From Komagataeibacter intermedius TF2 (lineage in GTDB: Bacteria; Pseudomonadota; Alphaproteobacteria; Acetobacterales; Acetobacteraceae), in NCBI RefSeq assembly GCF_000964425.1, contig NZ_BANF01000027.1, positions 62,001 through 126,000 on the forward strand: 64,000 bases of DNA, given 5' to 3'. A program made the translations under genes and the position numbers. The notes under the pieces were generated by a model. That model saw only the letters and a list, made by a program, of their open reading frames with translations, was not told the origin of the DNA and searched no databases. Below are positions 23,008 to 47,795 of this stretch, one piece after another. Each line of letters starts with the position of its first letter. Position 1 is the stretch's first letter.

Positions 23008-23049
23008 TGGACCGGTCCCTCATCGCCCAACCATAAGGAAAAAAACATC

Positions 23050-29770: not shown

Positions 29771-30192
29771 GCCAGCATCCTTGCAGACAGACGGAAACAA
29801 TCATGAACCGGACAAGTCATGACTTAATGGATATATGCACCCGCCGACCATCATACGATACCAGAACCCTGTCCGTAATCCGTAAGTATGGCAGGCAGAA
29901 TGCCGCGACAGGCCGCCTGCGTTCCCGCACGCCGTTCCCGATGCACGTTTCCGCCTTCAGGGGTATGGGCGCCGGGTATGCCCATCGCAGGGCGGTACAC
30001 CACTTCTGGCGCCACGTCCCACGCTTCGTGGCGACTTCATTACATGAAAATAATGGAACCGGTTGCGATGACACAGGACAGCATGCACATGTCCGCGCGC
30101 ATCCGTTTCGATATCAGAAATATAATTTGCTCATTAAGAACATTTGTGCGCACAGTGACATCCGTGAGGGCTTCTCATCATAAGGAACCGCA
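29771..30192. other. divergent intergenic region before the carbamate kinase operon
   Basis: I see no convincing gene in these 422 bases. Short open frames run through, but they lack ribosome sites and protein-like composition. The right end holds a TATAAT box and a TGTG/CACA palindrome, annotated separately. Confidence 0.45.
30121..30154 (+). promoter_or_regulatory. candidate promoter and operator of the carbamate kinase operon
   Basis: A perfect TATAAT lies at 30121-30126 without a good -35 box. A perfect 10-bp palindrome TGTGCGCACA lies at 30145-30154, where it would overlie the early transcribed region. This suggests repression, perhaps by the IclR protein encoded downstream. The start codon of the kinase gene is 38 bases further on. 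Confidence 0.4.
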
Positions 30193-31107
30193 ATGAAATC
30201 CGTCATCGCCCTTGGGGGTAACGCGCTGATGCAGCGGGGGCAGCCCCTGAGCATATCCGTCCAGCGTGAAAATGCCCGAATGGCCGCATGCGCCCTGGCT
30301 GGCATTGCGCGCAGGCACCAGCTTGTCCTGACCCATGGCAACGGGCCACAGGTCGGCCTGCTGGCCATGCAGTCACAGGCATTCAGGCAGGCCCCGCCCT
30401 ATCCGTTCGATATCATGGGGGCTGCGACCGAAGGCATGATCGGGTATATCCTGGAACAGGAACTGGGCAACGTGCTGGGTCGGGATGTACCCGTGGCAAC
30501 ATTGCTGACACGTGTTGAAGTGGACCCGGACGACCCGGAATTTACCAGTCCAAGCAAATATATCGGTCCCCATTTTGATGAAGCGCAGGCGCAGGCATTA
30601 ATCGACCAGTATGGATGGACCTTCAAAAAGGATGGCCCGTCCTGGCGGCGCGTGATCGCATCCCCCCACCCGTTACGAATTCTGTGGCATCGGCCCATCC
30701 GCTGGCTGCTGGACAATGGCGCGGTCATCATCTGTGGCGGCGGCGGAGGCATTCCTGTCATTTCCACCCCGGATGGCAGCCTGCAGGGCATTGATGCAGT
30801 CATTGACAAGGATCGCGTCTCCAGCCTGCTTGCGGTTCACCTGTCGGCTGACCTGTTCATCATCGCGACGGATGTTCCGGGCATATACGAAAACTACGGC
30901 ACGCCACAGCAGAAGCTCCTGACATCACTGACTGCGGGAGAACTGAAGCAGAAAGAGTTTTCCAAGGGGTCGATGGGGCCGAAAGTCGAAGCGATCATCA
31001 ATTTCGTGCAGAAAACCGGACGTCCCGCCGCGATTGGCTGCCTGTCGGAAATCGAGAAGATCATCGCCCGGCAGGCGGGAACGTGGATCATGCCCGATGC
31101 GAACTGA
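30193..31107 (+). CDS. arcC: carbamate kinase
   Basis: Cytosolic kinase that makes ATP from carbamoyl phosphate and ADP, 304 residues, close to family length. Motifs visible are IALGGNALMQRG at the N-terminus, LTHGNGPQVGLLAMQS, ICGGGGGIPVI and the DKDRVSSLLA aspartate/lysine segment. FSKGSMGPKVEA follows near the C-terminus. An AAGGA site precedes the ATG. It heads an operon with the DUF2877/AllH homologue and a GlcG-like gene. No arginine deiminase or ornithine carbamoyltransferase is nearby, so the carbamoyl phosphate is more likely to come from the FdrA/AllG/AllH-type transferase encoded around it (inference). In that role it corresponds to E. coli AllK. Confidence 0.92.
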   Translation: MKSVIALGGNALMQRGQPLSISVQRENARMAACALAGIARRHQLVLTHGNGPQVGLLAMQSQAFRQAPPYPFDIMGAATEGMIGYILEQELGNVLGRDVPVATLLTRVEVDPDDPEFTSPSKYIGPHFDEAQAQALIDQYGWTFKKDGPSWRRVIASPHPLRILWHRPIRWLLDNGAVIICGGGGGIPVISTPDGSLQGIDAVIDKDRVSSLLAVHLSADLFIIATDVPGIYENYGTPQQKLLTSLTAGELKQKEFSKGSMGPKVEAIINFVQKTGRPAAIGCLSEIEKIIARQAGTWIMPDAN

Positions 31108-31113
31108 AATCCC

Positions 31114-32019
31114 GTGCCAGACATAAAACCTGTCATTGCAGGTTCGTTCATCCGGTCACGATTGCTGGGCATGGAGGGTACCGTCACCGTCCTTGCCCGG
31201 TTTACCGGCTATATATATCTGGCTGTCGCGCATGCCGGGGATCCGGTCATTGTGGTCATTACACTGAGTGGAGGCCGGATCGGGCCACTATCCATCGTGC
31301 TGCCCGGGCACAGGACCCTGCCCCTGAACAGTTCTGCGCGGGGGCGCCTGCGGGGCGGTGTCATCGAAATTGATGCCCTGCGGATCAATCTGCATCAGGC
31401 CCGGATACATGAGTCGGCGCTGAAGGCGCGCATGGCCCCGGCCCGGGTACCATCATGGCTGGAAGGTGTGCTGCGTGACCTCGCTCCCCTGCCCCGGCGC
31501 ACGGCCATCCTGCCATCGGTATCTGCCCCTGCGTCGCCATCGGCCGAAGCCCGCGCCCTTACCCGGCTGTTCCACGCCGGTCTTGCATCTGGACATGCAC
31601 GCGACATTGCCATGGCTGCCGGCAGGCTTGCCGGACTGGGCCGGGGCCTGACACCCGGCGGGGACGATTTCCTGTGCGGATTTATGGTCGCGGTCTGGTT
31701 TTCAGCACCCGACCCGATACAGACCTGCATGCCCATCCTGACTGCGGCCCGCGGACAGACCACGTCATTGTCCCTGGCCTTTCTTGATGCAGCGGCCCAC
31801 GGTCATGTCAGCGATACATGGCGGGACTTTCTGGAACCCGTATCGCATGACGCGCCACGGACCGGGGTACTGAAAAACGTCATGGCGCCCGGCTTCAGTT
31901 CGGGGGAAGATACGCTTGCAGGTTTTATCTGGGGAATGCAGGCCATGCATATGCCACCTGCCGCCCTTCCCCCCATACCACTGGACGCCCTGTCCGCCAT
32001 GGGCGGCGCACCCGATTGA
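31114..32019 (+). CDS. DUF2877 / AllH-like subunit of carbamoyltransferase
   Basis: 301-residue protein recognised by the conserved GLGRGLTPGGDDFLCGF segment in its second half, which matches the family of E. coli YlbF (AllH). In E. coli, AllF (FdrA), AllG and AllH together form oxamate carbamoyltransferase of allantoin catabolism. It starts with GTG, 6 bases after carbamate kinase, and has no clear ribosome site, so coupling to arcC is likely. In this genome it is separated from fdrA and the allG-like genes by an IclR gene and an operon boundary. Confidence 0.8.
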   Translation: MPDIKPVIAGSFIRSRLLGMEGTVTVLARFTGYIYLAVAHAGDPVIVVITLSGGRIGPLSIVLPGHRTLPLNSSARGRLRGGVIEIDALRINLHQARIHESALKARMAPARVPSWLEGVLRDLAPLPRRTAILPSVSAPASPSAEARALTRLFHAGLASGHARDIAMAAGRLAGLGRGLTPGGDDFLCGFMVAVWFSAPDPIQTCMPILTAARGQTTSLSLAFLDAAAHGHVSDTWRDFLEPVSHDAPRTGVLKNVMAPGFSSGEDTLAGFIWGMQAMHMPPAALPPIPLDALSAMGGAPD

Positions 32020-32036
32020 AGGATGGATCAGAAAAC

Positions 32037-32444
32037 ATGAATATTCAGCTTGAAGATGCACAGGCCGCGATGAAGGCCGCGATCGACAGGGCCCGCGCGC
32101 TTGATATCGAAATATGCGTTGCGGTCATGGATGGGGGCGGACGGCTTGTCACGTTCGCACGGATGGACCAGTCCAACTGGGCCAGCATTTTCGGAAGCCA
32201 GGGAAAGGCGGCCACATCTGCGGCAACACGGTGCAAAAGCGGCGTCATACCACCTGAATCCGTTGTCATGTCGCGCATTCGGGAAATGGAGGGCAACAAC
32301 CTGATTTATGCGAAAGGCGCGGTTCCCCTGTTCCGCGATGGCATGCTGATCGGCGCCATTGGCGTGGGCGGGGCAAGCGCCGATCTGGATGAAGCCTGCG
32401 CCGGGGCGGGTGCTGCCGCCATTGGCTGCACAACGTCAGGCTGA
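32037..32444 (+). CDS. GlcG/HbpS-like protein
   Basis: 135-residue protein of the GlcG/HbpS (heme-degrading domain-like) family. Visible are AMKAAIDRARALDIEICVAVMD, ARMDQSNWASI and a C-terminal DGMLIGAIGVGGASADLDE. Members bind heme or cobalamin, or are uncharacterised accessory proteins in glycolate and diol operons. The ATG at 32037 was chosen over TTG 32016 because an AAGGATGG stretch sits upstream and the protein then begins at the conserved helix. It is the last gene of the arcC operon, with a clear terminator following. Confidence 0.82.
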   Translation: MNIQLEDAQAAMKAAIDRARALDIEICVAVMDGGGRLVTFARMDQSNWASIFGSQGKAATSAATRCKSGVIPPESVVMSRIREMEGNNLIYAKGAVPLFRDGMLIGAIGVGGASADLDEACAGAGAAAIGCTTSG

Positions 32445-32488
32445 GGTCGCCGTTTTCCGCCCGCGCCACATGATCCGTGGGGCCGCTT

Positions 32489-32519
32489 CCCCTTTGCATA
32501 AAGGGGGGATTTGTTTTTT
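32489..32519 (+). terminator. intrinsic terminator of the arcC-allH-glcG operon
   Basis: CCCCTTT-GCAT-AAAGGGG forms a perfect 7-bp stem with a tetraloop, followed by GGATTTGTTTTTT. This is the best-looking intrinsic terminator in the window. It sits 45 bases after the glcG-like stop and just before the iclR gene. Confidence 0.8.
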
Positions 32520-32538
32520 AACGAATGGATCTTTTAAT
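32511..32538 (+). promoter_or_regulatory. candidate promoter of iclR, overlapping the terminator tail
   Basis: TTGTTT (32511-32516) and TTTAAT (32533-32538) with a 16-bp spacer lie directly before the iclR ATG at 32550. The predicted transcript would be almost leaderless, about 5 bases. The -35 box overlaps the T-run of the terminator. Confidence 0.4.
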
Positions 32539-32549
32539 TCCATGCGGAC

Positions 32550-33335
32550 ATGACAGTGCAGAACTCTACGGAAGAAATAAAAAAAAACAGGGGACTGGTC
32601 GGGTCCCTGGCGCATGGTCTGAATGTGCTGATGGCTTTCGACAAGGACCATGCACAGATGACGCTGTCCGTTGTGTCCGAACGGACCGGCATGGACCGGG
32701 CCAGCGCGCGGCGCTACCTTCTGACGCTATGCCATCTGGGATTTGTGACCCAGTCCGGGCGTCTTTTCCGACTGACGTCAAAAGTCATGGATCTGGGCTA
32801 CAGTTTTCTGTCATCCATTCCGCTTGCGCAGAAGGCGCAGCCCTATCTGAACATGATCCGCGACCAGACCGGGTTTCCTGTCGCCCTGGGCATCCGGGAT
32901 GAACTGGACATCGTGCATGTCGCATCCGCCAATACGGATGAATTCGCCTCCCCCGCGCTGACGATCGGCAGGCGCTTCCCGCTGGCCTATGCATCCGCCG
33001 GGCGGTGCATCCTTGCATTCCTGCCCGGTGACGAACGTGATGCGATCCTCAGGCGGATCAGGCTTGCGCCCCTGTCGGAATATTCCATCACGACCATGGC
33101 GGGACTGCGCGCGAACCTGACGGATACGCAGAAAACCGGGTTTGCGCTGGTGGATCAGGAAATGCAGGTTGGCATCCGGTCGCTTGCCGTGCCGGTATTT
33201 GATCACAATGCCAATGTTGTCGCCTCGTTCAACACGTTTACATTCAGCAGCATCGTCCCCGAGGACGTACTGATCGAACGGGCGCTGCCGACAATGCTGG
33301 CTGTCGCCACGGAATTCGGCAAAACCATTATCTAG
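32550..33335 (+). CDS. IclR-family transcriptional regulator (1)
   Basis: 261-residue regulator. An N-terminal winged helix covers about residues 13-70 (GLNVLMAFDKDHAQMTLSVV, then ASARRYLLTL). An effector-binding GAF-like domain covers about 85-255, with the family RRFPLAYASAGRCILAFL and GFALVDQEMQVGIRSLAVPV. It resembles the PcaR/PobR branch, whose members respond to aromatic or small organic acids. It lies between the two halves of the carbamoyltransferase genes and is the likely local regulator. No ribosome site is evident, consistent with a nearly leaderless start. Confidence 0.9.
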   Translation: MTVQNSTEEIKKNRGLVGSLAHGLNVLMAFDKDHAQMTLSVVSERTGMDRASARRYLLTLCHLGFVTQSGRLFRLTSKVMDLGYSFLSSIPLAQKAQPYLNMIRDQTGFPVALGIRDELDIVHVASANTDEFASPALTIGRRFPLAYASAGRCILAFLPGDERDAILRRIRLAPLSEYSITTMAGLRANLTDTQKTGFALVDQEMQVGIRSLAVPVFDHNANVVASFNTFTFSSIVPEDVLIERALPTMLAVATEFGKTII

Positions 33336-33455
33336 ACGACGCATATTCCGCCATCCGACCGGGGGATGCCACATTCCATATGAGAAGCGGCGTCCACCTG
33401 CCACGAAATCTTTATTAAAATATTCCCCTGCGGAAAATTCATTTCGAATATGCAC

Positions 33456-33495
33456 TTGCTTTCTCCGGTGCAAACCGTGTCTATTGTGAACATAA
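33456..33495 (+). promoter_or_regulatory. candidate promoter and GntR-type operator of the SBP/fdrA operon
   Basis: TATTGTGAACATAA at 33482-33495 is, on the opposite strand, identical over 11 consecutive bases (TGTTCACAATA) to the palindrome at 19161-19174. A weak promoter, TTGCTT (33456-33461) and TCTATT (33480-33485) with an 18-bp spacer, would place the site over the -10 box, a repressing position. The first gene starts at 33527. Confidence 0.5.
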
Positions 33496-33526
33496 GTTTT
33501 CAATGTGATCATGGTGGGATGATGTG

Positions 33527-35053
33527 ATGACGGGTTCTCCACGGCGGCTGCGCATTGGTGTGCATTACGAGCCCTCCAATATTGACCCTCATCTCGGGGC
33601 GGCCGAACTCGCACTGCAGATGACGAACGGGGTTTTCGATACGCTCGTCAACAAGACCGTCGAAGGTGATTATCTTCCCGGTCTGGCGGACAGTTTTTCA
33701 ATATCGGACGACCAGTGCCGGTATATTTTTTCCCTTCGCAGGGATGTACGGTTCCACGACGGCACGCCGTTTGATGCGCAGGCCGTGCAGGCAAGCCTTG
33801 ACCGGGCGCATGACCCGGCCAACCGCTCCCAGCTGGCCGGCGCCCTGCTGGGTCCCTACCGCCAGACGAACATTCTTGACGCGCATACGGTGGAAATCAT
33901 TCTGGACCAGCCCTATGCCCTGTTCCTGGATGCGCTGAGCCAGGGCTGGCTTGCCCCTGTGTCACCGGCTTCCATTCGCGCGCTCGGTCCTGATTTCTGC
34001 AGGCATCCTGTCGGGACCGGCCCGTTCCGTTTTGAACGCTGGGATTCCGGGGACTGCCTGGTCATCACACGCAATGACGATTATGCATGGGCGCCGGCAC
34101 TGGTCGAAAACAGGGGACCTGCCCATCTGGATGAAATCGTCTTCAAGTTCATTCCTGACGATGGTGCAAGAACCGAAGCCCTTCTGACCGGCGAGGTCGA
34201 CGCCATTTTCGCAGCCAATCCGGCCGATGCGGCGGCACTGAGGAACCAGCCGGGGCTGTCCGTCGCCTGCTGGCCCATACGTGGCGTGCCGGTCAGCCTG
34301 ATGATGAATACCAAACGGGCGCCAACCGATAATATCCATGTCCGCCAGGCCATTTCCTATGCGCTGGATGTAGACAGCCTTGTCACGGAAATATTCAGTG
34401 GTGAATTTACCCGCGCCTACGGGCCTGTGTCCCAGTATACCCTTGGTTATGAACCCCGGGTCGAAAAACTGTATCACCACGATATTGAAAAGGCCCGCAC
34501 CCTGCTGGACGGGGAAGGATGGCTGACCGGCCCGGACCAGTTCCGCCACAAGGATGGCAGGCTGCTGGACGTCATCATTTATGTCCTGCCCGTCAATTTC
34601 TATCCTGAAATCGGCGCGTATGTGAAAAGACAGCTTGCGAAAGTCGGGATCGCGGTCAGGGTCGAACTATGTGATGCCCGGACATGGATCAGGGCGGGCA
34701 TGGATGGCGCCCATAACCTGATCCCGCAGGGCAAATATGCCAGTTCGTCCCAGCTGCTCAGTTTTGTCTATCATTCACGGCAGAGCGGCCAGAACGGATA
34801 TGGCTGGAGCAAGCGGGACGCTTCGGATTTTACCGTCATCGATAAACTGATTGATTCAGCGGAAACCTGCATAAAACCGGAAGACTACGTTCCGATTTTC
34901 AAGCAGGTCCAGATGGAAGTCATGGAAGCCGCCCTGTGCATTCCGGTCCATTGCAATACAAACATCGTGTCCCACAAGAACAGCGTGACGGGGTTCAGGT
35001 TTGACGCTATCGGCGCCTACCCGCTTTTTCACGATACCAACATAACCCCCTAA
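33527..35053 (+). CDS. family-5 extracellular solute-binding protein, no signal peptide
   Basis: 508-residue protein of the dipeptide/oligopeptide/nickel-binding SBP_bac_5 fold. Typical segments are SNIDPHLGAAELALQMTNGVFD, VRFHDGTPFDAQAVQASLDR, VGTGPFRFERWDSGD and VRQAISYALD. The N-terminus MTGSPRRLRIGVHYEPS starts directly at the first strand of the mature fold. An in-frame stop at 33506-33508 excludes an upstream extension, so no export signal or lipobox exists. No ABC permease or ATPase gene is in the window. It is either a cytosolic ligand-binding protein of the pathway or has lost its export signal. It is the first gene of the fdrA operon. Confidence 0.85.
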   Translation: MTGSPRRLRIGVHYEPSNIDPHLGAAELALQMTNGVFDTLVNKTVEGDYLPGLADSFSISDDQCRYIFSLRRDVRFHDGTPFDAQAVQASLDRAHDPANRSQLAGALLGPYRQTNILDAHTVEIILDQPYALFLDALSQGWLAPVSPASIRALGPDFCRHPVGTGPFRFERWDSGDCLVITRNDDYAWAPALVENRGPAHLDEIVFKFIPDDGARTEALLTGEVDAIFAANPADAAALRNQPGLSVACWPIRGVPVSLMMNTKRAPTDNIHVRQAISYALDVDSLVTEIFSGEFTRAYGPVSQYTLGYEPRVEKLYHHDIEKARTLLDGEGWLTGPDQFRHKDGRLLDVIIYVLPVNFYPEIGAYVKRQLAKVGIAVRVELCDARTWIRAGMDGAHNLIPQGKYASSSQLLSFVYHSRQSGQNGYGWSKRDASDFTVIDKLIDSAETCIKPEDYVPIFKQVQMEVMEAALCIPVHCNTNIVSHKNSVTGFRFDAIGAYPLFHDTNITP

Positions 35054-35066
35054 GGAGCAGCGGCCA

Positions 35067-36608
35067 ATGCCATCGCGCATAGTTGTTCGTCCACGTGAAT
35101 ACCATGATTCCGTCAGGCTCATGCGCCTTTCCCAGCTTCTGCGCAAGGAAGCGGGCGTGTCTGAAGCCATGATCATGATGGCGACCCCCAATAACAGGAA
35201 AATACTCGACACCACGGGTTTCTGTTCCGAACAGGCGCGGAATGCAAATCCCGAAGACCTGATCGTGGCGGTGACGGCCCAGACGGAAGAAGAAGCCGAC
35301 GCCGCCATTGCGACAGCAATCCATATGCTGCAGAAAAATATGGAAAATGCAGGGAATGCCGTTCAGGCCGGCACGCTGGATGAAGCGATTTCACTGCATC
35401 CGGACATCAACTTCGCCTGCATTTCCGTTCCTGGCTCCTTCGCCGCTGACGAAGCGGAACAGGCGCTGGAGCGGGGGCTGAATGTCTTCCTATTCAGTGA
35501 CAACGTCACGATTGAAGATGAAAAGCGCCTCAAGCAAACAGCCCTGAAACAGAACAGGCTGCTCATGGGGCCAGACTGCGGCACCGCGATCATCAACGGC
35601 GCCGCCATCGGCTTCGCCAACGCCGTCGCACGTGGTCCCGTCGGGATCGTGGCCGCGTCCGGCACTGGCGCACAGGAAATATCCAGCCTGCTGGACTGGA
35701 TGGATGTCGGCATAAGCCACATCATCGGCACGGGTGGCCGTGACCTGCATCAGGATATCGGGGGGGCAACAATGTGCCAGGCCCTCGAACTGATGGCGCA
35801 GGACCCGCAGACGGACATTATTGTCGTGACGTCCAAGCCGCCTTCGGCCATCGCGCAGGACCGTGTCTTTGCGACCACCGCCAGGATTGGCAAGCCGATC
35901 ATTTTCAATTTCCTTGGCGCGACCCCGCCTGCCGATGCAGCGGGCGCGGAATTCTGCGCGACGCTGGCGGAAACGGCACTGGCAACCGCGCGGCATGTCA
36001 GACCGGAAGCCACCCTGCCCTGCGCCCCGCAGGCGGACAGGGACGACTTCATCCGCAATGCGCTCGACACCAGAACGCCTGTTCAGCGCTATGTCCGCGG
36101 CCTGTATGCGGGTGGGACGCTCTGTTATGAAGCGCTTCTCCTGCTGGGGGATATTCCGGGCGGGGTCTATTCCAACCTCAAGCACGACAGCCATGCCCTG
36201 ACGGATATATTTACCAGCCAGGGTCATACCGTGATCGACATGGGGGACGACGCCTATACGCAGGGCCGTGCCCATCCCATGATCGATCCCGGCCTGCGGA
36301 ACCAGCGGATATTGCATGAAGCCGCGGACCCCGAAGTCGCACTTCTGCTGCTTGATCTTGTCATCGGCTACGGCGCGCAGGACAACCCGGCGCGCAATCT
36401 GGCTGAAATCCTGCACACAGCGCGCAATATCGCCGGACAGGACGGACGTAGCCTGCCGGTCATCGTGACCATCTGCGGGACCAGGCATGATATCCAGAAC
36501 TACAGTGACCAGGTTGAACAGCTTGAGCAGGCAGGTGTCATGGTGACACGCAGCAATGCAGAGGCCGTTACTTTGGCAAAGCGTTATGTTGAGGCAATCA
36601 ATGTCTGA
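35067..36608 (+). CDS. fdrA: FdrA / AllF-like subunit of carbamoyltransferase
   Basis: 513-residue protein of the FdrA family, built from two CoA-ligase-like halves. Conserved segments are GPDCGTAIING at 168-178, SGTGAQE at 199-205, GTGGRDL at 221-227, and a C-terminal half with YAGGTLCYEA and GRAHPMIDP. In E. coli FdrA (AllF) joins AllG and AllH as oxamate carbamoyltransferase, which phosphorolyses a carbamoylated product to carbamoyl phosphate. An AAGGAG site lies before the ATG, 13 bases after the solute-binding-protein gene. The stop overlaps the next small ORF by 8 bases. The carbamoyl donor here need not be oxalurate. Confidence 0.88.
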   Translation: MPSRIVVRPREYHDSVRLMRLSQLLRKEAGVSEAMIMMATPNNRKILDTTGFCSEQARNANPEDLIVAVTAQTEEEADAAIATAIHMLQKNMENAGNAVQAGTLDEAISLHPDINFACISVPGSFAADEAEQALERGLNVFLFSDNVTIEDEKRLKQTALKQNRLLMGPDCGTAIINGAAIGFANAVARGPVGIVAASGTGAQEISSLLDWMDVGISHIIGTGGRDLHQDIGGATMCQALELMAQDPQTDIIVVTSKPPSAIAQDRVFATTARIGKPIIFNFLGATPPADAAGAEFCATLAETALATARHVRPEATLPCAPQADRDDFIRNALDTRTPVQRYVRGLYAGGTLCYEALLLLGDIPGGVYSNLKHDSHALTDIFTSQGHTVIDMGDDAYTQGRAHPMIDPGLRNQRILHEAADPEVALLLLDLVIGYGAQDNPARNLAEILHTARNIAGQDGRSLPVIVTICGTRHDIQNYSDQVEQLEQAGVMVTRSNAEAVTLAKRYVEAINV

Positions 36609-36777
36609 AAATCCCAATCCACTGCTTTCCGGCGCCCCCCTTCATATCGCCAATATTGGTATCGAACTGATCGGCGAAAATCTGGAACGGCAGGACGTCA
36701 AGGTGGTTCAGGTCCGCTGGCTTCCCCCGGTCAGGCATGACGCAGAACTGACAGCCCTGCTTGATACGTTGCTCTGA
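36601..36777 (+). CDS. 58-residue protein between fdrA and the DUF1116 genes
   Basis: Short ORF starting 8 bases inside the fdrA end and stopping 21 bases before the first DUF1116 gene. Its sequence has a clear fold-like pattern: LHIANIGIELIGENL, then VVQVRWLPPVR, then a short C-terminal helix. From memory, similar INxG...VxxVxWxPP segments occur fused to FdrA or to YlbE/AllG-type proteins in other genomes; I could not check this. It is most likely a genuine small subunit or a split-off module of the transferase, translated by coupling to fdrA. Confidence 0.72.
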   Translation: MSENPNPLLSGAPLHIANIGIELIGENLERQDVKVVQVRWLPPVRHDAELTALLDTLL

Positions 36778-36798
36778 CAGCGACCACGGAGAACAGAT

Positions 36799-38064
36799 AT
36801 GGTAGATATCAAGACCCGCATCGAAACGGCCAATGCCCGGACGATTGAAATCATGCGTACCGGCACGGCCCAGCTTGTCGACGTCGGGCCGGCGCTGGAA
36901 ATCGTACCGGGCATGCAGAAGAACATCATTCTGCATTCCGGTCCGGCCATTCCATGGCGGGAAATGTGTGGCCCCCACCGCAACGGCGTCACGGGCGCCG
37001 CCCTGTGGGAAGGACTGGCGCAATCCCCCGAAGAGGCATGGCGCAAGCTTGATTCAGGCGAAATCCAGGTGGCGCCGTGTCACGACTACCTATGCGTCGG
37101 CGCTGGGGGAGGAATCATTTCCGCCTCCACCCCCGTGATGGTGGTCGAGAACACGACCTTCGGCAACCGCGCCTATAGCTGCATTTCGGAAGGGGGCGGC
37201 CTGCGCCTGCTGAAATGGGGGTATTATGACGACGCCATCCTGAAAAACCTGTCATGGCAGGCCGAAGTGTTCGCGCCAGTGTTCCAGAAGGCGCTGCGGG
37301 CATCCGGGCCAATTGACATCAAGGCGATCATCTCCCGCGCGGTGGAGATGGGCGACGAATGCCATAACCGCTCCATTGCGGCGACGCTTCTGTTCCTGAG
37401 GGAACTCTACCCCTCACTGCTGACGCTGGACATGCCGGGCGAGGATGTCAGGACTTCCCTGAAATTCCTGGTGGATTCCGAACATTTCCTCCTGCACGCC
37501 ATCATGGCGGCGGCCAAGGCGGTGCTGGTGCCAGCCGAACGGATCCCGTACAGCACGATTGTCACGGCCATGGCCCGCAACGGGGTGGACTTCGGCATAA
37601 AGGTCAGCGCCTTGGGCGATACGTGGTTCACGGCCCCCGCCCGGATGGTGAAAGGGCTCTATTTCCGTGCGGAATGGGATGATAACTGCGCGGCACCCGA
37701 TCTGGGGGACAGCGCCATTACCGAAACCGTCGGACTGGGCGGATTCATTCAGCCCTGCGCACCTACCGTCACCCAGTTCGTTCAGGGCAACATCCACTCC
37801 GCAATCGGCAATACGCGCAAAATGCAGGAAATATGCGCCAGCACCAATCCTGATGTCCGTATCCCGGTCATGGATTTCACGCCCGGCCCGATCGGTATTG
37901 ACATCCGCAAGGTTGTCCGGACCGGCATTACTCCCCTGCTGGATACCGCCATCACCCACAAGGATGGCGGCCTGATTGGCGCAGGCGAAGTGCATGCCCC
38001 CCTGGAATGTTTCGAAAAGGCGCTCAGGGCGTTCGGTCAGCAGCTGGAAGGCATGTCGGCATGA
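36799..38064 (+). CDS. DUF1116 protein, AllG/YlbE-like (copy A)
   Basis: 421-residue member of the YlbE/YahG (DUF1116) family, the AllG subunit of oxamate carbamoyltransferase in E. coli. Visible motifs are VAPCHDY at 91-97, the family segment GNRAYSCISEGGGLRLL at about 122-138, GDECHNR at 185-191 and ARNGVDFGIKVS. A GGAGA site precedes the ATG. Its stop overlaps the start of a second DUF1116 gene (ATGA). Copy A keeps the GNRAYS motif that copy B has lost, so the two probably have different roles. Confidence 0.88.
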   Translation: MVDIKTRIETANARTIEIMRTGTAQLVDVGPALEIVPGMQKNIILHSGPAIPWREMCGPHRNGVTGAALWEGLAQSPEEAWRKLDSGEIQVAPCHDYLCVGAGGGIISASTPVMVVENTTFGNRAYSCISEGGGLRLLKWGYYDDAILKNLSWQAEVFAPVFQKALRASGPIDIKAIISRAVEMGDECHNRSIAATLLFLRELYPSLLTLDMPGEDVRTSLKFLVDSEHFLLHAIMAAAKAVLVPAERIPYSTIVTAMARNGVDFGIKVSALGDTWFTAPARMVKGLYFRAEWDDNCAAPDLGDSAITETVGLGGFIQPCAPTVTQFVQGNIHSAIGNTRKMQEICASTNPDVRIPVMDFTPGPIGIDIRKVVRTGITPLLDTAITHKDGGLIGAGEVHAPLECFEKALRAFGQQLEGMSA

Positions 38065-39320
38065 CACTGAAGGAAAAAATCGAAGCCGCCAACCAGGAAG
38101 CATTTTCCCGGCTGCACCTTGCAAAACCGGTCTGGGTAGATGTCAGGCCAGCCATTGACGCACTTCCGGGCATGACCCGTTCGACCATCCTGCATGCGGG
38201 GCCACCGATTGACTGGAACCGCATGTGCCCGCCCCAGAAAATGGGCGTGGTACAGGGAATCCTGCATGAAGGGCTGGCTGAAACGGAACAGGCTGCCGAG
38301 GCGCTGATCGCCTCCGGGGCCGTTACGGTCGCGCCCTGTCATGAATATGGCGCGGTCGGGGGCATGGCGGGCATCACGACAGCCTCCAGCCCCCTTGCCG
38401 TGGTCCATGACCCGGTCCATGACAGCTGGGGGTACTCCCAGCTGTTCCAGGGACCGGCGACCGGGCTGCAGGACCGGGCCGATTACAACCGCGAAGCCCG
38501 CAGGCGGTGGACATGGCTGGAACAGGTCTTTGGCCCCACGCTTGCGGCCGCCGTCCGCGCAACCCCTGGCATTCCCGTCAAGCCGGTCATGGCCCGCGCG
38601 CTGGAAATGGGCGATGAATGCCATAACCGCAACAGTGCCGGCAGCAGCGTGATCCTGAACGCCCTGATCATGGCGCTATATGATACATGCAAGGATCATG
38701 GCAGACTGCGCGAGATACTGGCTTACCTGAAAATCAATGACCAGTTCTCCCTGTGTGTCTCCATGGCGGCGGCCAAGGCCATGGCCAACGCCGTGGGAGG
38801 GATCGAGTATAGTACGGTTGTGTCCGCCATGTGCCGCAATGGCGTTGATTTTGGCATAAAGATCAGTGGCATGGGGGATCGCTGGTATACCGCGCCCGCC
38901 AACCGCATCCACGGGCTTTATTTCTCATCCGAATGGACCGATGCGGATGCCGTGCCCGATATCGGGGACAGCAGCATCATGGAAACCATCGGGCTTGGTG
39001 GTCATGTGCAGGCGGCCGCCCCGGTGCTGCAGCAGTTTGTGGACGGCTCATTCGCCCATGCCCAGTCCGTCGTGCACAAGATGGAGCAGATTACTGTCGG
39101 CGCCCTGAAGGAGTTCAAGATCACGACCATGGACTTTATCGGCGCACCCGCCGGTATCGACATACGCAAGGTCATGAAGACCGGCATCACCCCGGTCATA
39201 GATACGGCGATTGCCCATCGGCAGGGCGGCGTGGTCGGCGCGGGACAGACCACGGCCCCCATGGGATGCTTTGCCGAAGCACTCCGGGATTTTGGCCGAC
39301 GTTATACGCAAACAGCCTGA
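38061..39320 (+). CDS. DUF1116 protein, AllG/YlbE-like (copy B)
   Basis: 419-residue paralogue of the preceding gene, starting at 38061 in an ATGA overlap. It shares VAPCHEY, GDECHNR (184-190), CRNGVDFGIKISG and the GIDIRKV..TGITPVIDTAI end segment. Where copy A has GNRAYSCISEGGG, copy B reads DSWGYSQLFQGPATG. The pair therefore looks like an old duplication with divergence, possibly forming a hetero-oligomer. It is the last gene of the operon, and the stop codon lies in the loop of a terminator-like hairpin. Confidence 0.88.
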   Translation: MTLKEKIEAANQEAFSRLHLAKPVWVDVRPAIDALPGMTRSTILHAGPPIDWNRMCPPQKMGVVQGILHEGLAETEQAAEALIASGAVTVAPCHEYGAVGGMAGITTASSPLAVVHDPVHDSWGYSQLFQGPATGLQDRADYNREARRRWTWLEQVFGPTLAAAVRATPGIPVKPVMARALEMGDECHNRNSAGSSVILNALIMALYDTCKDHGRLREILAYLKINDQFSLCVSMAAAKAMANAVGGIEYSTVVSAMCRNGVDFGIKISGMGDRWYTAPANRIHGLYFSSEWTDADAVPDIGDSSIMETIGLGGHVQAAAPVLQQFVDGSFAHAQSVVHKMEQITVGALKEFKITTMDFIGAPAGIDIRKVMKTGITPVIDTAIAHRQGGVVGAGQTTAPMGCFAEALRDFGRRYTQTA

Positions 39321-39360: not shown

Positions 39361-40854
39361 TCATATGACCCCGGCCCAGTTTTCTCGCCGCCAGTCGCCT
39401 ACAGCATAAGGCATGCCTGCCCTGTCCACCCCGGCACAGGCGATGGCGCCAAAACACATTGCCCCGTCCGCCATCGGTTCGATGACATGCCCCATCCCGG
39501 CCAGGGCGGATCGGGCAGGATGCCTGTGTTCCATCAGCAGTTTACCCGCCTGACTGCGCCACCGGGGGGCGGCAATGGCAGTTGCCAGGTCTTCCCCGCG
39601 CCGGATGATACGGTCAATGAACTGCAGAAGGGTCTGGACCTGCCCATCAGCCCCCGGCGTCGCAATGGCAAGCGTGCCACGGTCCGTCCGCAACAGGGCT
39701 GGTGCCAGCGTATGGACCGGCCTTTTACCCGGTGCATAGGAATTGGCACCCTGTGTAAAACCGCCCGCCCTGTTGTTCAGGAAAATGCCCAGTTCGGGAA
39801 CGAAAACACACGACCCGAAATCATCAAACACGCTGACAAGGGAAGATACCGCCATTCCCTGCGCATCGGTCACGCAGACGCCCGCGGTATGCAGGTACCC
39901 ACGCGGGCCACCACGGTTTGCGGCGCGGGATACGTCAATCTCCAGCGGCTGATCCAGCAGCGCCATTCCTTCAAACGCGCGGTCGCGACAGGCAAAGGAA
40001 GCTTCGGTCAGTTCAACGGCAATGTGTTCCGCCGCAATATCATCGGCCGGCTGGAAATTCGCGAAATTGTTCAGGACCATTCCCAGCAGCACGCCCTGCG
40101 TCGGCGGTGGCTGGAGAAAAACGTCCACTCCATTATGGTTGACCTGCAGGGGATCGGTCAGCCCTGTCTGGTGAACGGCCATGTCATTCAGGTCAAGTGC
40201 GCCGCCCAGCGCGCGGACGCGGCTGACAATGGCGCGGGCCATGTCCCCTGTATAGAAACACGCAGGCCCCGTGCGGGCGAAAGCACGCAGCACTTCGGCC
40301 AGTTGCGGCTGGACATGTTTTTCACCTGCCTTCACATGCCGCCATGGGCACGCGGCAGATCCGTTCTGTCGCAGGCGTTCATCATGCCCCGCAAGGGTCC
40401 TGCCCAGACAGGCGGAGACCTCAAACCCGTTTTGCGCGATCAGCGTGGCGCGTTTCAGGCACGCTTCCAGCGGCAGGACGCCCCACCTGTCATGCATGAC
40501 GGACCATGCGCCCGGCAGGCCCGGCACCGTGATGCTGTTCGCCCCGTCAATCGCGCAGTCATGACCGGATGCGGGGGCCGCCCCGGCACCGCTTATGGCC
40601 TTTACCGACTGACTGTCATCGATAATCGCGAACAGATCCCCCCCGATGCCACATGCATCGGGGGAAACCACGCAGAGAACGGCCTGCGCGGCGATGGCCG
40701 CATCCACGGCCGATCCCCCCTGCCCCAGTATTTCCTGTCCCGCCGCCACCGCCAGGGGATGGGCCGCGGACACCGCGCCCGTACAGCCTGAAAGGACGGG
40801 CATGACCGGTGACGAATAGCCATCGGCAACCCGCCAGTGCGAACCTGTTGTCAT
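39361..40854 (-). CDS. gamma-glutamyltransferase-family Ntn hydrolase, cytosolic
   Basis: 497-residue enzyme of the gamma-glutamyltransferase (GGT/YwrD) family, which hydrolyses or transfers gamma-glutamyl groups after self-cleavage. The large-subunit part carries AAHPLAVAAGQEIL and GGSAVDAAIA. The nucleophile aligns to T323 in YLHTAGVCVTD, where classical enzymes read TTHYSVVD. The oxyanion region PELGIFLNN follows. There is no export signal, unlike the periplasmic E. coli enzyme. As the last gene of the nine-gene operon it could remove a gamma-glutamyl group added by the GS-like ligase encoded at 56 kb (inference). It abuts the SDR gene with no gap. Confidence 0.87.
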   Translation of the reverse strand: MTTGSHWRVADGYSSPVMPVLSGCTGAVSAAHPLAVAAGQEILGQGGSAVDAAIAAQAVLCVVSPDACGIGGDLFAIIDDSQSVKAISGAGAAPASGHDCAIDGANSITVPGLPGAWSVMHDRWGVLPLEACLKRATLIAQNGFEVSACLGRTLAGHDERLRQNGSAACPWRHVKAGEKHVQPQLAEVLRAFARTGPACFYTGDMARAIVSRVRALGGALDLNDMAVHQTGLTDPLQVNHNGVDVFLQPPPTQGVLLGMVLNNFANFQPADDIAAEHIAVELTEASFACRDRAFEGMALLDQPLEIDVSRAANRGGPRGYLHTAGVCVTDAQGMAVSSLVSVFDDFGSCVFVPELGIFLNNRAGGFTQGANSYAPGKRPVHTLAPALLRTDRGTLAIATPGADGQVQTLLQFIDRIIRRGEDLATAIAAPRWRSQAGKLLMEHRHPARSALAGMGHVIEPMADGAMCFGAIACAGVDRAGMPYAVGDWRRENWAGVI

Positions 40855-41595
40855 TTATACCGCCGTGTAACCGCCATCGATGACGATGGACGTACCCGCT
40901 ATGTACCGCCCTGCTTCCGAACTCAGCAGCAGGATCAGGGATGAAACCTCGTCCGGCACACCGTGTCGGCCCAGCGGGATCTGCGCATCGATTTCCTTGC
41001 GCCGCCCCTGCGGATCCTGCTGGAAGGTCCAGAAGGGATCATTGAACGGCGTGTCGATCCAGCCTGGCAGGATGCAGTTGATCCGGATGCCCCTGGGGCC
41101 AAGTTCCGCAGTCAGGCTACGCGCCAGCCCCGGCAGGGCGGCCTTTGTCGCCTGATAGGCGGACATGCCTGCATGCCCCTTGATCGCCCCGGTGGAGGAC
41201 GTGAAGATGATGCTGGGGTTATCGGACGCCGCAAGATGGGGTGCGGCTGCCTGCGTCATGAAGAACGGCATCTTGAGATTGAGGTCCGTCGTACGGTCCC
41301 ACATCTCCTCGGTCCAGTCGGGCAATGTTGCCGACAGCATGAGGGCGGCGGTAATCAGGACGGTATCAAGCCCGCCAAACTGCCGGACTGCGGTCTCCAC
41401 CACTTCCCTGGCCACACCTGGCGCGCCAAGGTCGCGCTGCATGAACATGCAGGCTCCCTTTCCCGGCTCATCCGCCACGGCCTGCGCCTGTTCACGATGG
41501 TCGACAAGGACGACATTATCCCCGCGTTCGCGAAACTTCCTTACGCTTGCCAGCCCGATACCTGTCGCACCGCCAGCAACGATTACGGTTCCCAT
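40855..41595 (-). CDS. SDR-family oxidoreductase
   Basis: Short-chain dehydrogenase/reductase, 246 residues from the ATG at 41595; the longer frame upstream runs into the P450 gene and is rejected. The nucleotide motif GGATGIG lies at the N-terminus. Acidic VDHRE after the second strand favours NAD(H). The catalytic residues are Ser in FTSSTGAIKGHAG and Tyr/Lys in SAYQATKAA. The ending GTSIVIDGGYTAV is typical. It sits 14 bases after the P450 gene and probably oxidises an alcohol or dihydrodiol formed by an oxygenase of the cluster. Confidence 0.92.
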   Translation of the reverse strand: MGTVIVAGGATGIGLASVRKFRERGDNVVLVDHREQAQAVADEPGKGACMFMQRDLGAPGVAREVVETAVRQFGGLDTVLITAALMLSATLPDWTEEMWDRTTDLNLKMPFFMTQAAAPHLAASDNPSIIFTSSTGAIKGHAGMSAYQATKAALPGLARSLTAELGPRGIRINCILPGWIDTPFNDPFWTFQQDPQGRRKEIDAQIPLGRHGVPDEVSSLILLLSSEAGRYIAGTSIVIDGGYTAV

Positions 41596-41609
41596 TTTAT
41601 CTGTTCTCC

Positions 41610-42809
41610 TTATCTGGGACCAATGGCCATGGGCAGCGTGAGCAGGCCACGCAGTCCGGGCGTCAGGCGCAGGGTTGCGTCCTGTGTCATGTCCAGCCTG
41701 CCAAACTTTTCCGCCAGCGTGCGGAAAAAGACCTCGCCTTCCAGACGCGCCATCATCTGCGCGACACAGCCATGGATGCCGGTGCCATAGCCGATCTGGT
41801 GCGTGATGCGGCGGCGGATATCGAACCGGTCGGGTTCCTCCCACACAGCCGGGTCGCGACCGGCCGAGCCGATCAGCACCAGTACCTTCTGGTGCCTGTC
41901 CAGCTTCTGGCCTTCGAACTCGAACGCCCCGGTCGTCGTGCGGAACAGGCTCTGGGAGGAACTGTCGTAACGCGTTGCTTCTTCAAACGCGGCACGGGCC
42001 AGGGTGGGATCTTCCTGCAGGATCTTCCACTGTTCGGGATGTTCCGCCAGCGCGCGCAGGCACAGGCCTATGGAATCAATGGTCGTATCCACCCCCGCCG
42101 AGAGGAAGGAGCGCACAAGCAGCTTGGCTTCCGCATGCGTGACTTCGCCGCGGTCAGCCGCAGCATAGATGGCCGCGCCCAGCCCGTCATCGGTCAGGGC
42201 GGACCGCTCGCACCTGGCATCGACCCACGCACTGACTTCATCAGCACGTTCCAGCAGCCTGTCATACCAGGCCGTACGCGGCCCGAAGGCGCCGAAGACC
42301 ATACCACCGTAAATAAGCATCATGTCCCGGTCCAGCGGGGGCATGCCCACTGCGTCGGGAAAGACCTTCATGGGGAAGGGCTGCACCAGCTGCGAAATCG
42401 CCTCGATTTCCCGGTTTTCAAGCACCCGGTCCATCAGCGTGTTGGCTTCCTGCAGAAAAACCTTGCGCATTTTCTGAAGCGCGCCCGGCGTGAAAAGACG
42501 CATCAGCACACGGCGCGTGCGTTCATGTTCCGGTGGATCGACTTCAAGGATGATGCTTGGCTTGCGCCAGTTCGGTTCCTTGAAATAATTGGTCAGGCCA
42601 CCGCCGCCCGCATTGGAAAACCGCTTCCAGTCGGTCAGGACTTCCTTGACCTGCGCATAGTGGTGCACAACCCATATGTCATAGCGTTCCAGCCACACAA
42701 TGGGGCCCAGCGCCCGCAACTGCGCATAATGCCGATAGGGATCCGCGCGGAATTCTTCCGAAAAAGGGTCCAGGTCGGAACAGACCCGTCCATCCGTATG
42801 GTAAGTCAC
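41610..42809 (-). CDS. cytochrome P450, CYP199-like
   Basis: 399-residue bacterial class I P450. The I-helix reads AGVDTT (238-243), the ExxR pair is E277/R280, and the heme-binding loop is GYGTGIHGCVA with cysteine 348. The usual Phe of FGxG is Tyr, and the Gly after the Cys pair is Ala. Segments such as WRKPSIILEVDPPEHERTRR and VFPDAVG closely recall the CYP199A group, which O-demethylates para-substituted aromatic acids. It needs a ferredoxin and reductase; a matching pair lies at 53.3-54.8 kb. It overlaps hyuB by 4 bases. Confidence 0.9.
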   Translation of the reverse strand: MTYHTDGRVCSDLDPFSEEFRADPYRHYAQLRALGPIVWLERYDIWVVHHYAQVKEVLTDWKRFSNAGGGGLTNYFKEPNWRKPSIILEVDPPEHERTRRVLMRLFTPGALQKMRKVFLQEANTLMDRVLENREIEAISQLVQPFPMKVFPDAVGMPPLDRDMMLIYGGMVFGAFGPRTAWYDRLLERADEVSAWVDARCERSALTDDGLGAAIYAAADRGEVTHAEAKLLVRSFLSAGVDTTIDSIGLCLRALAEHPEQWKILQEDPTLARAAFEEATRYDSSSQSLFRTTTGAFEFEGQKLDRHQKVLVLIGSAGRDPAVWEEPDRFDIRRRITHQIGYGTGIHGCVAQMMARLEGEVFFRTLAEKFGRLDMTQDATLRLTPGLRGLLTLPMAIGPR

Positions 42810-46641: not shown

Positions 46642-47795
46642 TTATCAGACCGGAAAGACTGAAGCTTTTCTTCATCAACAACGATTCCGAGCCCCGGCGC
46701 ATCAGGCGGCAGGAGGGCCCCGTCCTTAACAGCCATTGGCTCCGCCAGGACATCATCATCATAATAATGGCCGGCCACACGATACGGATGGGTGCCCGAT
46801 GGCGCGCTGATCGCGATGACCGCCGCCAGGGAAACACTCGGCCGCGCCAACGCGAAATGCACATTGGCCGCCGTGCCGATCGCTGACTCAATGGAACCAT
46901 TGACGTCACAGGCCATGAGATGTGATTCCGCAAAGTCCGCCACCTTGCACGCCCCGCCAAAACCGCCGGCCTTGGCAAGGTAGATGGAGAAGCAGTCGGC
47001 TGCCCGTTCACGGACGACATCGTAGGCGTCATGAATGTCCCAGCAGCTTTCATCCGCCACGATGGGCACGGACGACGATGCCGTGACTTCCGACATGTAA
47101 CGCAGGCCCTGCGACGGCTGTTCCACCAGTGACACACCGGCATCCGTCAGCTGCCTTACGACACGCGACGCATTCTTGCCGTGGCCATATCCCTGATTGG
47201 CATCCATGCGCAGCGTGATGCCATCCCCCAGCAGCCTGCGCAGTTCCGTGATGAGCGAGATATCCCGCGCGCTATCCACGCCCCCCTTGATCTGGAGGGT
47301 GCCGACACCATCTTCCACCGCCATGACGGCTTCCTGCACGGCCTCGGCCTGCGGCATCAGGCCCACCATATGCGCGACCGCCACGCCATCACGCACCTTT
47401 CCGCCCAGCAGCCTGTACACAGGCAGGCCTGTCACCTTGCCCCATGCGTCATACAGCGCGATACTGACGGCGCATTTGGCATAGACGTTCCCGACCGCCA
47501 CATGGTTCATGATCTGGGCCGCACGCGTCACATCTGAAACATCCGACCCGATCAGTGCCGGCCCCAGCACGTTCTGGACCATTTCGATAACGGTTTTGAC
47601 CGTCTCGCCAGCATGACGGCCAAAATCCCCGCCCCAGTCGGGAAGCGGTGTTGCTTCCCCCCAGCCGACAACGCCATTTTCCGTTTCGACCCGGACCGCG
47701 ACAAAATTCCCCAGGTCCCCCAGCATGCCAGCCCAGCGGAAGTCACGCCGCGTGGGCAGTGAAAATGGGAACGCCGTAATAGAGATAATTTTCAA
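46638..47795 (-). CDS. enolase-superfamily (muconate-cycloisomerase/mandelate-racemase type) enzyme
   Basis: 385-residue metal-dependent enzyme. The barrel motifs are visible in order: Lys in LQIKGG, metal ligands in MDANQGYG, VEQPSQ and ADESCW, and Lys in LAKAGGF. Members abstract a proton next to a carboxylate and act as racemases, epimerases, dehydratases or cycloisomerases. The start is TTG at 47795, supported by a GAGGAGAA ribosome site 7-14 bases upstream, and it overlaps the MFS stop by 4 bases. In this operon it may epimerise or cycloisomerise an intermediate. It is not classifiable further by eye. Confidence 0.88.
   Translation of the reverse strand: MKIISITAFPFSLPTRRDFRWAGMLGDLGNFVAVRVETENGVVGWGEATPLPDWGGDFGRHAGETVKTVIEMVQNVLGPALIGSDVSDVTRAAQIMNHVAVGNVYAKCAVSIALYDAWGKVTGLPVYRLLGGKVRDGVAVAHMVGLMPQAEAVQEAVMAVEDGVGTLQIKGGVDSARDISLITELRRLLGDGITLRMDANQGYGHGKNASRVVRQLTDAGVSLVEQPSQGLRYMSEVTASSSVPIVADESCWDIHDAYDVVRERAADCFSIYLAKAGGFGGACKVADFAESHLMACDVNGSIESAIGTAANVHFALARPSVSLAAVIAISAPSGTHPYRVAGHYYDDDVLAEPMAVKDGALLPPDAPGLGIVVDEEKLQSFRSDK

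What the first reader, a model, noticed from the sequence alone, without database searches (positions are those of the whole stretch)
30193..39320. Split FdrA/AllG/AllH carbamoyltransferase plus carbamate kinase in an apparently aerobic catabolic island
All parts of the E. coli oxamate carbamoyltransferase set (AllF, AllG, AllH, and carbamate kinase AllK) are present. They are divided into two operons separated by an iclR gene, and lie beside hydantoinase A/B, P450 and Rieske genes. No allantoate amidohydrolase, ureidoglycolate dehydrogenase or oxalurate-specific gene is in the window. The transferase may therefore recover ATP from a different N-carbamoyl compound, for example one made by HyuAB. 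That would be a new use of this enzyme family.
Basis: partly seen in the sequence, partly recalled or inferred. Interest (0 to 1): 0.8.

Follow-up and report, generated by a model that had tools for sequence, protein, structure and literature searches.

The report
Carbamoyl-transferase set in hydantoinase island
A rare block of about 32,000 bases in acetic acid bacteria joins the E. coli type enzyme that recovers energy from carbamoyl compounds to genes that oxidise and open rings, so it probably burns an unknown ring compound rather than allantoin and regains some of the energy spent.

Summary
Observation confirmed: arcC, allH, fdrA, a 58-residue ORF and two allG genes at 30193-39320, in two operons around iclR; an HbpS-like gene and a signal-less solute-binding protein are also there. 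They belong to a ~32 kb block (30193-62293) kept in order, at 33-81% protein identity, in two genomes of another genus with different flanks. In two searches of 299 genomes of the order, island-type fdrA and the island's MR/MLE gene were in the same 4. So the HyuAB/P450 link is conserved. AllD and AllE: no match in those 4; AllC and allantoinase: only sub-cutoff paralogues. A motif from the other genus has its two best window sites upstream of the fdrA and arcC operons. The 58-residue ORF is a detached domain, fused to AllF or AllG in E. coli. AllG2 lacks a Glu and a Gly invariant in the other AllG aligned. A non-allantoin setting is not itself new: allC/D/E lie near fdrA in 4 of 80 relatives, and a 2025 paper reports allFGHK beside biuret genes. 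Pairing with HyuAB was not seen in other loci read. Substrate unknown. Most likely HyuAB spends ATP to open a cyclic ureide and this set recovers ATP via carbamoyl phosphate.

The parts
30193..31107 (+). arcC, carbamate kinase
   Evidence: NF009008 428 bits, cut-off 361; 97% in G355, 69-70% in G295/G265
31114..32019 (+). allH (DUF2877), start GTG; fast-evolving subunit
   Evidence: PF11392 75 bits; 89% in G355, 33% over 284 aa in G265, 48% over 120 aa in G295; long open frames in both
32037..32445 (+). HbpS/GlcG-like gene in the arcC operon
   Evidence: PF03928 91 bits; 69-70% in G265/G295
32550..33335 (+). iclR regulator between the two operons
   Evidence: PF01614, PF09339; 65-66% in G265/G295, where arcC is divergent from it
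33493..33512 (-). operator-like site upstream of the SBP5-fdrA operon
   Evidence: top-scoring of 63,981 window positions with a matrix from G295/G265 sites
30125..30144 (+). operator-like site upstream of arcC
   Evidence: second of 63,981 positions with the same matrix
33524..35053 (+). family 5 solute-binding protein without visible signal peptide, first gene of the fdrA operon
   Evidence: PF00496 255 bits; N-termini of 4 of 4 orthologues judged by eye; 65-66% in G265/G295
35067..36608 (+). fdrA/allF
   Evidence: NF004760 482 bits, cut-off 433; 94% in G355, 59-60% in G295/G265
36601..36777 (+). 58-residue linker domain, free-standing; fused to the C-terminus of E. coli AllF and the N-terminus of YahG
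36799..38064 (+). allG1; keeps family-invariant Glu131 and Gly141
   Evidence: PF06545 264 bits; 74-75% in G265/G295
38061..39320 (+). allG2; Gln130 and Ala140 in place of invariant Glu and Gly
   Evidence: PF06545 233 bits; 73-74% in G265/G295
39361..40854 (-). GGT-family (Ntn) amidase lacking gamma-glutamyl-binding positions
   Evidence: PF01019; below NCBIfam GGT cut-off; motifs
40855..41610 (-). short-chain dehydrogenase (start uncertain)
   Evidence: PF13561; 74-75%
41610..42809 (-). cytochrome P450
   Evidence: PF00067; 80-81% in G295/G265
42806..44539 (-). hyuB
   Evidence: PF02538; 78-79%
44539..46641 (-). hyuA
   Evidence: PF01968, PF05378; 68%; best PDB match 7hk5 N-methylhydantoinase
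46638..47795 (-). MR/MLE enolase-superfamily enzyme
   Evidence: PF13378; 76-77%; orthologue in 4 of 299 genomes
47792..49051 (-). MFS transporter
   Evidence: PF07690; 55-56%
49053..50657 (-). carboxylesterase with Tat-like N-terminus (by eye)
   Evidence: PF00135; N-terminus; 62-63%
50686..53073 (-). TonB-dependent receptor
   Evidence: PF00593; 68-72%
53278..54510 (-). FAD ferredoxin reductase
   Evidence: PF07992; 48-51%
54495..54830 (-). [2Fe-2S] ferredoxin (ends approximate; identified by eye)
   Evidence: frame read; counterpart ORFs in G295 and G265
55011..56324 (+). Rieske oxygenase
   Evidence: PF00355, PF19301; 78%
56339..57775 (+). GS1, glutamine-synthetase-family ligase
   Evidence: PF00120; below the cut-offs of the NCBIfam models it matches; 66-69%
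58661..59953 (+). secretory lipase/esterase
   Evidence: PF03583; 58-59%
59993..61462 (+). amidohydrolase, 8-oxoguanine deaminase/Trz-Atz-like
   Evidence: PF01979; sub-cut-off NCBIfam; 56-57%
61520..62293 (+). metallo-beta-lactamase-fold, lactonase-like; right end of the shared block
   Evidence: PF00753; 50-53%

Best explanation
The 30193-62293 block is a mobile aerobic catabolic island of acetic acid bacteria for an unidentified, probably ester-linked, N-heterocyclic compound. Inferred steps: TonB receptor and secreted esterases take it up and de-esterify it; P450/SDR and Rieske/ferredoxin oxidise it; the ATP-dependent HyuAB pair opens a cyclic ureide (hydantoin- or imide-like ring). The carbamoyl group of the opened product is then phosphorolysed by an AllF/linker/AllG1-AllG2/AllH complex to carbamoyl phosphate, and ArcC turns that into ATP, CO2 and ammonia. 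The GGT-like amidase may hydrolyse the amide left behind. The ATP gained would offset the one spent by HyuAB, as in a creatinine-type route whose hydrolase is replaced by a phosphorolytic transferase. AllG1 is probably the catalytic AllG and AllG2 a degenerate partner that reshapes the site. Shown: the genes, their conserved block, the co-occurrence, no AllD/AllE match, the shared operator-like site, the AllG2 substitutions. Inferred: every reaction and substrate.
For: Whole block kept in order in two genomes of another genus with different flanks. Island-type fdrA and the MR/MLE gene occur in the same 4 genomes in two searches of 299 genomes of the order. AllD and AllE no match in 4 of 4, AllC and allantoinase none over cut-off. 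A matrix from the other genus ranks sites upstream of the SBP5-fdrA and arcC operons first and second of 63,981. HyuA best PDB match is N-methylhydantoinase. Elsewhere the family sits beside other ureide-ring or biuret enzymes: BiuH-like 12 of 80, ring-opening AtzD-like 3 of 80, and a plasmid set fdrA-DUF1116-AtzD-arcC. Purified E. coli AllFGH has oxamic transcarbamylase activity, assayed with carbamoyl phosphate and oxamate; the reaction is described as reversible (PMC11326118, abstract, introduction and discussion read).
Against: No substrate is identified. HyuA and HyuB score far below the NCBIfam equivalog cut-offs of the models they match, so hydantoinase activity is a family-level guess. 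HyuAB and the fdrA set are on opposite strands in separate operons, and no operator-like site ranks high before the HyuAB-side operon with the non-palindromic matrix (TonB2 region rank 30). The known substrate oxalurate is an acylurea; a classical hydantoinase product is not. AllG1/AllG2 group with lone AllG proteins, mostly beside GS genes and without an FdrA hit in the fetched stretches, so AllG may have another role; long branches make that grouping unsure.
Confidence: 0.4

Rival explanations
1. The transferase still acts on oxalurate. Oxalurate arises from another ring compound (for instance HyuAB opening a parabanate-like imide) or is imported, and the GGT-like amidase is an oxamate amidohydrolase of HpxW type.
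For: GGT-like proteins with the HT motif lie beside AllF/AllG in two other genomes of the class, L171 and L174; the island GGT small subunit matches 5hft_B (72.7 bits) better than other chains (next 51.3); 5hft as HpxW is recalled. HpxW as oxamate amidohydrolase: passage in PMC5270733. Island FdrA groups weakly (91) with two allantoin-type FdrA.
Against: Island GGT has TPGADGQ where L171 and L174 have TMGGEGQ and 5hft_B SMGGDGQ; its large subunit matches several other GGT-family chains better than 5hft_A. No AllD or AllE match in 4 of 4 genomes.
Confidence: 0.2
2. FdrA, AllG1 and AllG2 are not a carbamoyltransferase here but do amide or acyl-transfer chemistry tied to the glutamine-synthetase-like genes; ArcC and AllH serve something else.
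For: Lone AllG proteins, four of which group with AllG1/AllG2, lie near GS genes: GS2 hit near AllG in 8 of 20 fetched class stretches, and GS-family genes near a lone DUF1116 in a Rhodococcus plasmid. AllG2 has lost invariant residues. The island has GS1.
Against: ArcC and AllH are in the same block in 4 of 4 island genomes, and the arcC and fdrA operons share the operator-like site. FdrA of the window deviates from the columns invariant at 93% or more at 4 columns only.
Confidence: 0.15
3. The transferase and HyuAB are travelling companions only: two independent catabolic modules moved on one mobile island.
For: Different strands and operons; the arcC operon is inverted between genera; the Rieske-GS pair also occurs without the island on other plasmids.
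Against: Order and content kept at 33-81% protein identity; fdrA of this type and the MR/MLE orthologue not seen apart in the 299-genome searches.
Confidence: 0.15

Closest known systems
E. coli allFGHK oxamic transcarbamylase set (PMC11326118)
   Same: AllF, AllG, AllH, catabolic carbamate kinase, linker domain
   Different: Single AllG, linker fused to AllF, one operon, beside allantoin genes, anaerobic. Here AllG is doubled, linker free, two operons, no AllD/AllE match, beside HyuAB/P450/Rieske
E. coli yahE-F-G-I-J
   Same: Second complete FdrA/DUF1116/DUF2877/carbamate kinase set without allantoin genes around it
   Different: Linker fused to YahG; adjacent amidohydrolase YahJ, no HyuAB in the 15 kb read
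allFGHK collocated with triuret/biuret genes in comammox and archaea (PMC12625717, passages)
   Same: No upstream allantoin genes, oxygen-using hosts
   Different: Biuret/allophanate hydrolases instead of HyuAB; authors propose oxalurate degradation
Creatinine route by N-methylhydantoinase (recalled)
   Same: Deaminase-like amidohydrolase and ATP-dependent HyuAB leading to a carbamoyl compound
   Different: There a hydrolase releases the carbamoyl group without energy recovery; here a phosphorolytic transferase is proposed
Plasmid set fdrA-DUF1116-ring-opening amidohydrolase-arcC (Aminobacter pSR8)
   Same: Transferase set paired with a ring-opening enzyme
   Different: AtzD/TrzD family, not HyuAB; no P450 or Rieske in the stretch read

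Membership tests
OXTCase (AllF-AllG-AllH) | AllF, AllG and AllH homologues together | tested here: met
OXTCase (AllF-AllG-AllH) | Small linker domain present | tested here: met
   58-residue ORF, E 3e-14; E. coli AllF C-terminus 6e-17 with the same profile
OXTCase (AllF-AllG-AllH) | Family-invariant AllG residues | tested here: inconclusive
   AllG1 keeps Glu131/Gly141, AllG2 does not; 6 and 9 deviations of 55 columns against a median of 0; one lone AllG (L009) deviates at 13, two others at 6
OXTCase (AllF-AllG-AllH) | Allantoin-to-oxalurate genes in the genome | tested here: not met
   AllD, AllE no match in 4 of 4; AllC, allantoinase none over cut-off
OXTCase (AllF-AllG-AllH) | Phosphorolysis of oxalurate | not testable with these tools
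   needs assay
Carbamate kinase | Curated carbamate kinase model | tested here: met
   NF009008 (subfamily) 428.3 bits, cut-off 361; but the equivalog TIGR00746 352.2, just under its 358.25
ATP-dependent hydantoinase/oxoprolinase (HyuAB) | HyuA and HyuB domains, adjacent genes | tested here: met
ATP-dependent hydantoinase/oxoprolinase (HyuAB) | Substrate class by curated equivalog | tested here: inconclusive
   best CapA 495 and CapB 274 bits, cut-offs 1000
Gamma-glutamyltransferase | GGT equivalog cut-off and gamma-glutamyl-binding positions (positions recalled) | tested here: not met
   240 bits, cut-off 357.85; motifs SGAGAAP and VHTLAP
HpxW oxamate amidohydrolase | HT and T/SMGGxGQ motifs of the 5hft chain | tested here: inconclusive
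   HT present, second motif TPGADGQ

The most novel reading that the evidence does not exclude
A previously unreported ATP loop: an ATP-dependent ring-opening hydantoinase coupled in one island to a carbamoyl-phosphate-forming transferase with a heteromeric AllG1/AllG2 pair (one half degenerate), so that an oxygen-using bacterium regains by substrate-level phosphorylation the ATP spent on opening a cyclic ureide. ('Unreported' rests on the searches in an open-licence library only.)
Probability: 0.33. Interest if true: 0.8.

Novelty: new variant of a known kind. Interest (0 to 1): 0.6.

Why it matters
E. coli AllFGH was assigned as oxamic transcarbamylase in a 2024 paper (PMC11326118). The survey here suggests that allantoin is a minority setting and that the set is a reusable tool for harvesting ATP from ureides. 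The island gives a tractable case with a conserved gene list, a shared operator-like site and a natural AllG1/AllG2 pair for finding which AllG residues do the chemistry.

Tried and rejected
Chance or a misread: rejected by the conserved block. A hidden allantoin pathway: no AllD or AllE match, sub-cutoff paralogues for AllC and allantoinase. The GGT gene as true gamma-glutamyltransferase: below cut-off and binding positions changed. Fixing the HyuAB substrate from sequence: plasmid and PDB relatives gave no clear answer. Fixing the island substrate from relatives of P450, MR/MLE and Rieske: the plasmid neighbourhoods read do not hold the island; MR/MLE relatives at about 40% in G063, G015 and G652 lie near xanthine-dehydrogenase-like genes, with no HyuA or HyuB hit in the stretches read. 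A palindromic version of the operator matrix was less clear: arcC rank 3, SBP5 rank 6, two in-gene sites on top. Papers: no hit for ring-opening amidohydrolase with carbamate kinase or Komagataeibacter with hydantoinase; N-methylhydantoinase with carbamate kinase gave one genome paper, listing only; the two papers naming the yah genes were seen as listing only.
Full report
Observation. Operon 1 is arcC, allH, HbpS-like gene; operon 2 is SBP_bac_5, fdrA, the 58-residue ORF, allG1, allG2, with gaps of -8 to 21 bases; the GGT-to-carboxylesterase genes on the other strand abut or overlap by 1-4 bases, with the SDR start uncertain and one gap of 1 base. The window lies in a 150,470-base contig of a 3.88 Mb genome, by inference a Komagataeibacter or close kin.

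Conserved island. fdrA was sought in 299 genomes of the order: 7 match at 1e-40, the own genome, G355 (94%), G265 (60%), G295 (59%) and three relatives at 43-44%. tblastn of window proteins shows the same block in G265 and G295: HbpS-like, AllH, ArcC, IclR, SBP5, FdrA, (orf58), AllG1, AllG2, GGT-like, SDR, P450, HyuB, HyuA, MR/MLE, MFS, carboxylesterase, TonB receptor, FAD reductase, ferredoxin, Rieske, GS1, lipase, amidohydrolase, lactonase-like, at 33-81% identity (AllH lowest), with only the arcC operon inverted (the ferredoxin was recognised by eye among the ORFs). orf58 of G265 fell below the tblastn limit but is readable in frame. Flanking ORFs differ between G295 and G265 and from the window; IclR2 and GS2 of the window gave no hit of their own in the two blocks. 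In G355 ArcC to the carboxylesterase was seen; its contig is only 28,304 bases, and I did not read bases 1-2999 or look for the rest elsewhere in that genome. The MR/MLE gene, sought in 299 genomes of the order (the handles shown agree with those), is found at 76% or more in the same 4 genomes; two further genomes have 39-43% relatives. In a class draw of 385 genomes only 39-40% relatives were found beyond the own genome.

Not the allantoin route. AllD: no match at E 0.001 in 4 of 4 island genomes. AllE: likewise. AllC and allantoinase: matches in 4 of 4 but none over the curated cut-off; several are probably pyrimidine-pathway paralogues (inference). In each search E. coli was among the ringing controls; one control was over the cut-off for AllD, AllC and AllE, two for allantoinase (the outputs do not say which).

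The family at large. In these 80, by tblastn with chosen seeds at E 1e-10: AllG 73, AllH 45, ArcC 36, PF04199 cyclase 31, XdhA 24, BiuH-like 12, ankyrin/YahD-like 12, AtzF-like 9 (many weak), YahJ 6, AllC, AllD and AllE 4 each, AtzD 3, HyuA 0, HyuB 0, P450 0, GGT 0. Many loci are cut by contig ends, so these are lower bounds, and the 80 are those nearest the query. More than one AllG occurs in one of the 80, L065, which has two FdrA and three AllG. PMC12625717 (abstract and passages) reports allFGHK beside biuret genes without upstream allantoin genes, so a non-allantoin setting is in print.

Linker domain. A profile of 57 AllG N-terminal tails finds E. coli YahG (2e-26), the C-terminus of E. 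coli AllF (6e-17), the G295 ORF (1.5e-21) and the window ORF (3e-14), search space set to 100. YahG comes from the AllG set from which the profile was drawn, so its score is not independent; the other three are not in it. Thus the 58-residue ORF is a movable domain: fused to AllF, fused to AllG, or free as here.

AllG1 and AllG2. The two are 43% identical. In an alignment with 110 other AllG rows (not all independent), 55 columns are at least 95% invariant; AllG1 deviates at 6, AllG2 at 9, the median of the well-covered others is 0, but a lone AllG, L009, deviates at 13 and two others (L134, L135) at 6 like AllG1. AllG2 has Gln130 where 101 of 101 lettered rows have Glu and Ala140 where 102 of 102 have Gly; AllG1 keeps both; both share a one-residue deletion. 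AllG2 of G355, G295 and G265 differs at the same two columns (Gln in each; Ala, Asp, Asp). This suggests a heteromer with one altered half. In the tree of 97 AllG rows (23 of 120 left out by length or thinning), AllG1 and AllG2 form separate full-support clades inside a 14-row clade (99) with four other AllG of the class; branches are long. Of 29 places outside the own genome listed I fetched stretches around 20: a GS2 hit lies within about 3 kb of AllG in 8 of 20, none of them with an FdrA hit; one more (L160) has a lone AllG without GS. Three of the four AllG grouping with the island are in those 8. The FdrA tree of 90 rows (of 105 collected) puts the island clade (100) weakly (91) with two allantoin-type rows.

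GGT-like gene. It scores 240 bits against a GGT cut-off of 357.85. Against E. coli GGT it has SGAGAAP and KRPVHTLAP where E. coli has REMAP and KRPLSSMSP (roles of these positions recalled). The small subunit matches 5hft_B best (72.7 bits; identity of 5hft as HpxW recalled), the large part matches several other chains better than 5hft_A. GGT-like genes also lie beside AllG/AllF in L171 and L174, with the motif TMGGEGQPQTQ, which the island lacks (TPGADGQVQT). An amidase for the amide left after phosphorolysis is therefore likely, oxamate itself less certain.

Regulation. A 20-base matrix built from four sites (two of them identical) upstream of SBP5 and Rieske in G295 and G265 ranks 33493 (upstream of SBP5) first and 30125 (upstream of arcC) second of 63,981 window positions; third is a site inside a gene, the Rieske region ranks 15 and the TonB2 region 30. 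The SBP5 site could be conserved by descent; the arcC site is not orthologous to any site in the matrix. A symmetrised matrix was less clear.

Other features. SBP5 shows no signal peptide by eye in 4 of 4 orthologues, and none of the island genes annotated here is an ABC permease or ATPase, so it may be a cytosolic binding subunit. The carboxylesterase has a Tat-like and the lipase a Sec-like N-terminus (by eye). The amidohydrolase resembles 8-oxoguanine deaminase and Trz/Atz enzymes, the lactamase-fold protein AHL lactonases, the MR/MLE muconate cycloisomerases, all below curated cut-offs.

Mechanism. For E. coli: oxalurate plus phosphate and oxamate plus carbamoyl phosphate interconvert; the purified enzyme was assayed from carbamoyl phosphate and oxamate (PMC11326118). 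From this and the island content I infer that HyuAB opens a cyclic ureide at the cost of ATP and that the AllF/G/H-type complex plus ArcC recovers ATP. Oxalurate is an acylurea; biuret and ureidomalonate are too (chemistry, recalled), which fits the BiuH and AtzD settings and would favour an imide-type ring here. The substrate remains unknown.

Verdict. Observation confirmed; interpretation partly supported; new variant of a known kind.

Noticed in passing
L159, L161-L166, L175; L191: Lone AllG (DUF1116) genes without an FdrA seed hit sit near glutamine-synthetase-family genes in 8 of 20 class stretches and on a Rhodococcus plasmid, hinting at a second role for DUF1116.
   Followed up: partly
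33524-35053: Family 5 solute-binding protein without visible signal peptide, conserved as first gene of the fdrA operon; no ABC permease or ATPase was seen among the annotated island genes.
   Followed up: partly
L149 (Aminobacter pSR8) and plasmids: A plasmid-borne set fdrA-DUF1116-ring-opening amidohydrolase-arcC-BMP transporter-DUF2877 in Aminobacter; fdrA relatives are on 168 plasmid records (Escherichia 95), whose other neighbourhoods I did not read.
   Followed up: partly
53278-57775; L146, L147: Rieske-GS-ferredoxin-FAD reductase module is shared, Rieske at about 68-71%, with Methylobacterium nodulans and Polaromonas JS666 plasmids without the rest of the island in the stretches read.
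   Followed up: partly
62406-63734: Type III glutamine synthetase (636 bits, cut-off 470) directly right of the shared block, with no hit of its own in the G265/G295 stretches.
   Followed up: no
14116-24138: Left of the island: NCS1 purine/allantoin-type permease, TonB receptor, two adenosine-deaminase-family genes in tandem and a purine nucleoside permease family gene, a likely nucleoside salvage cluster.
   Followed up: no
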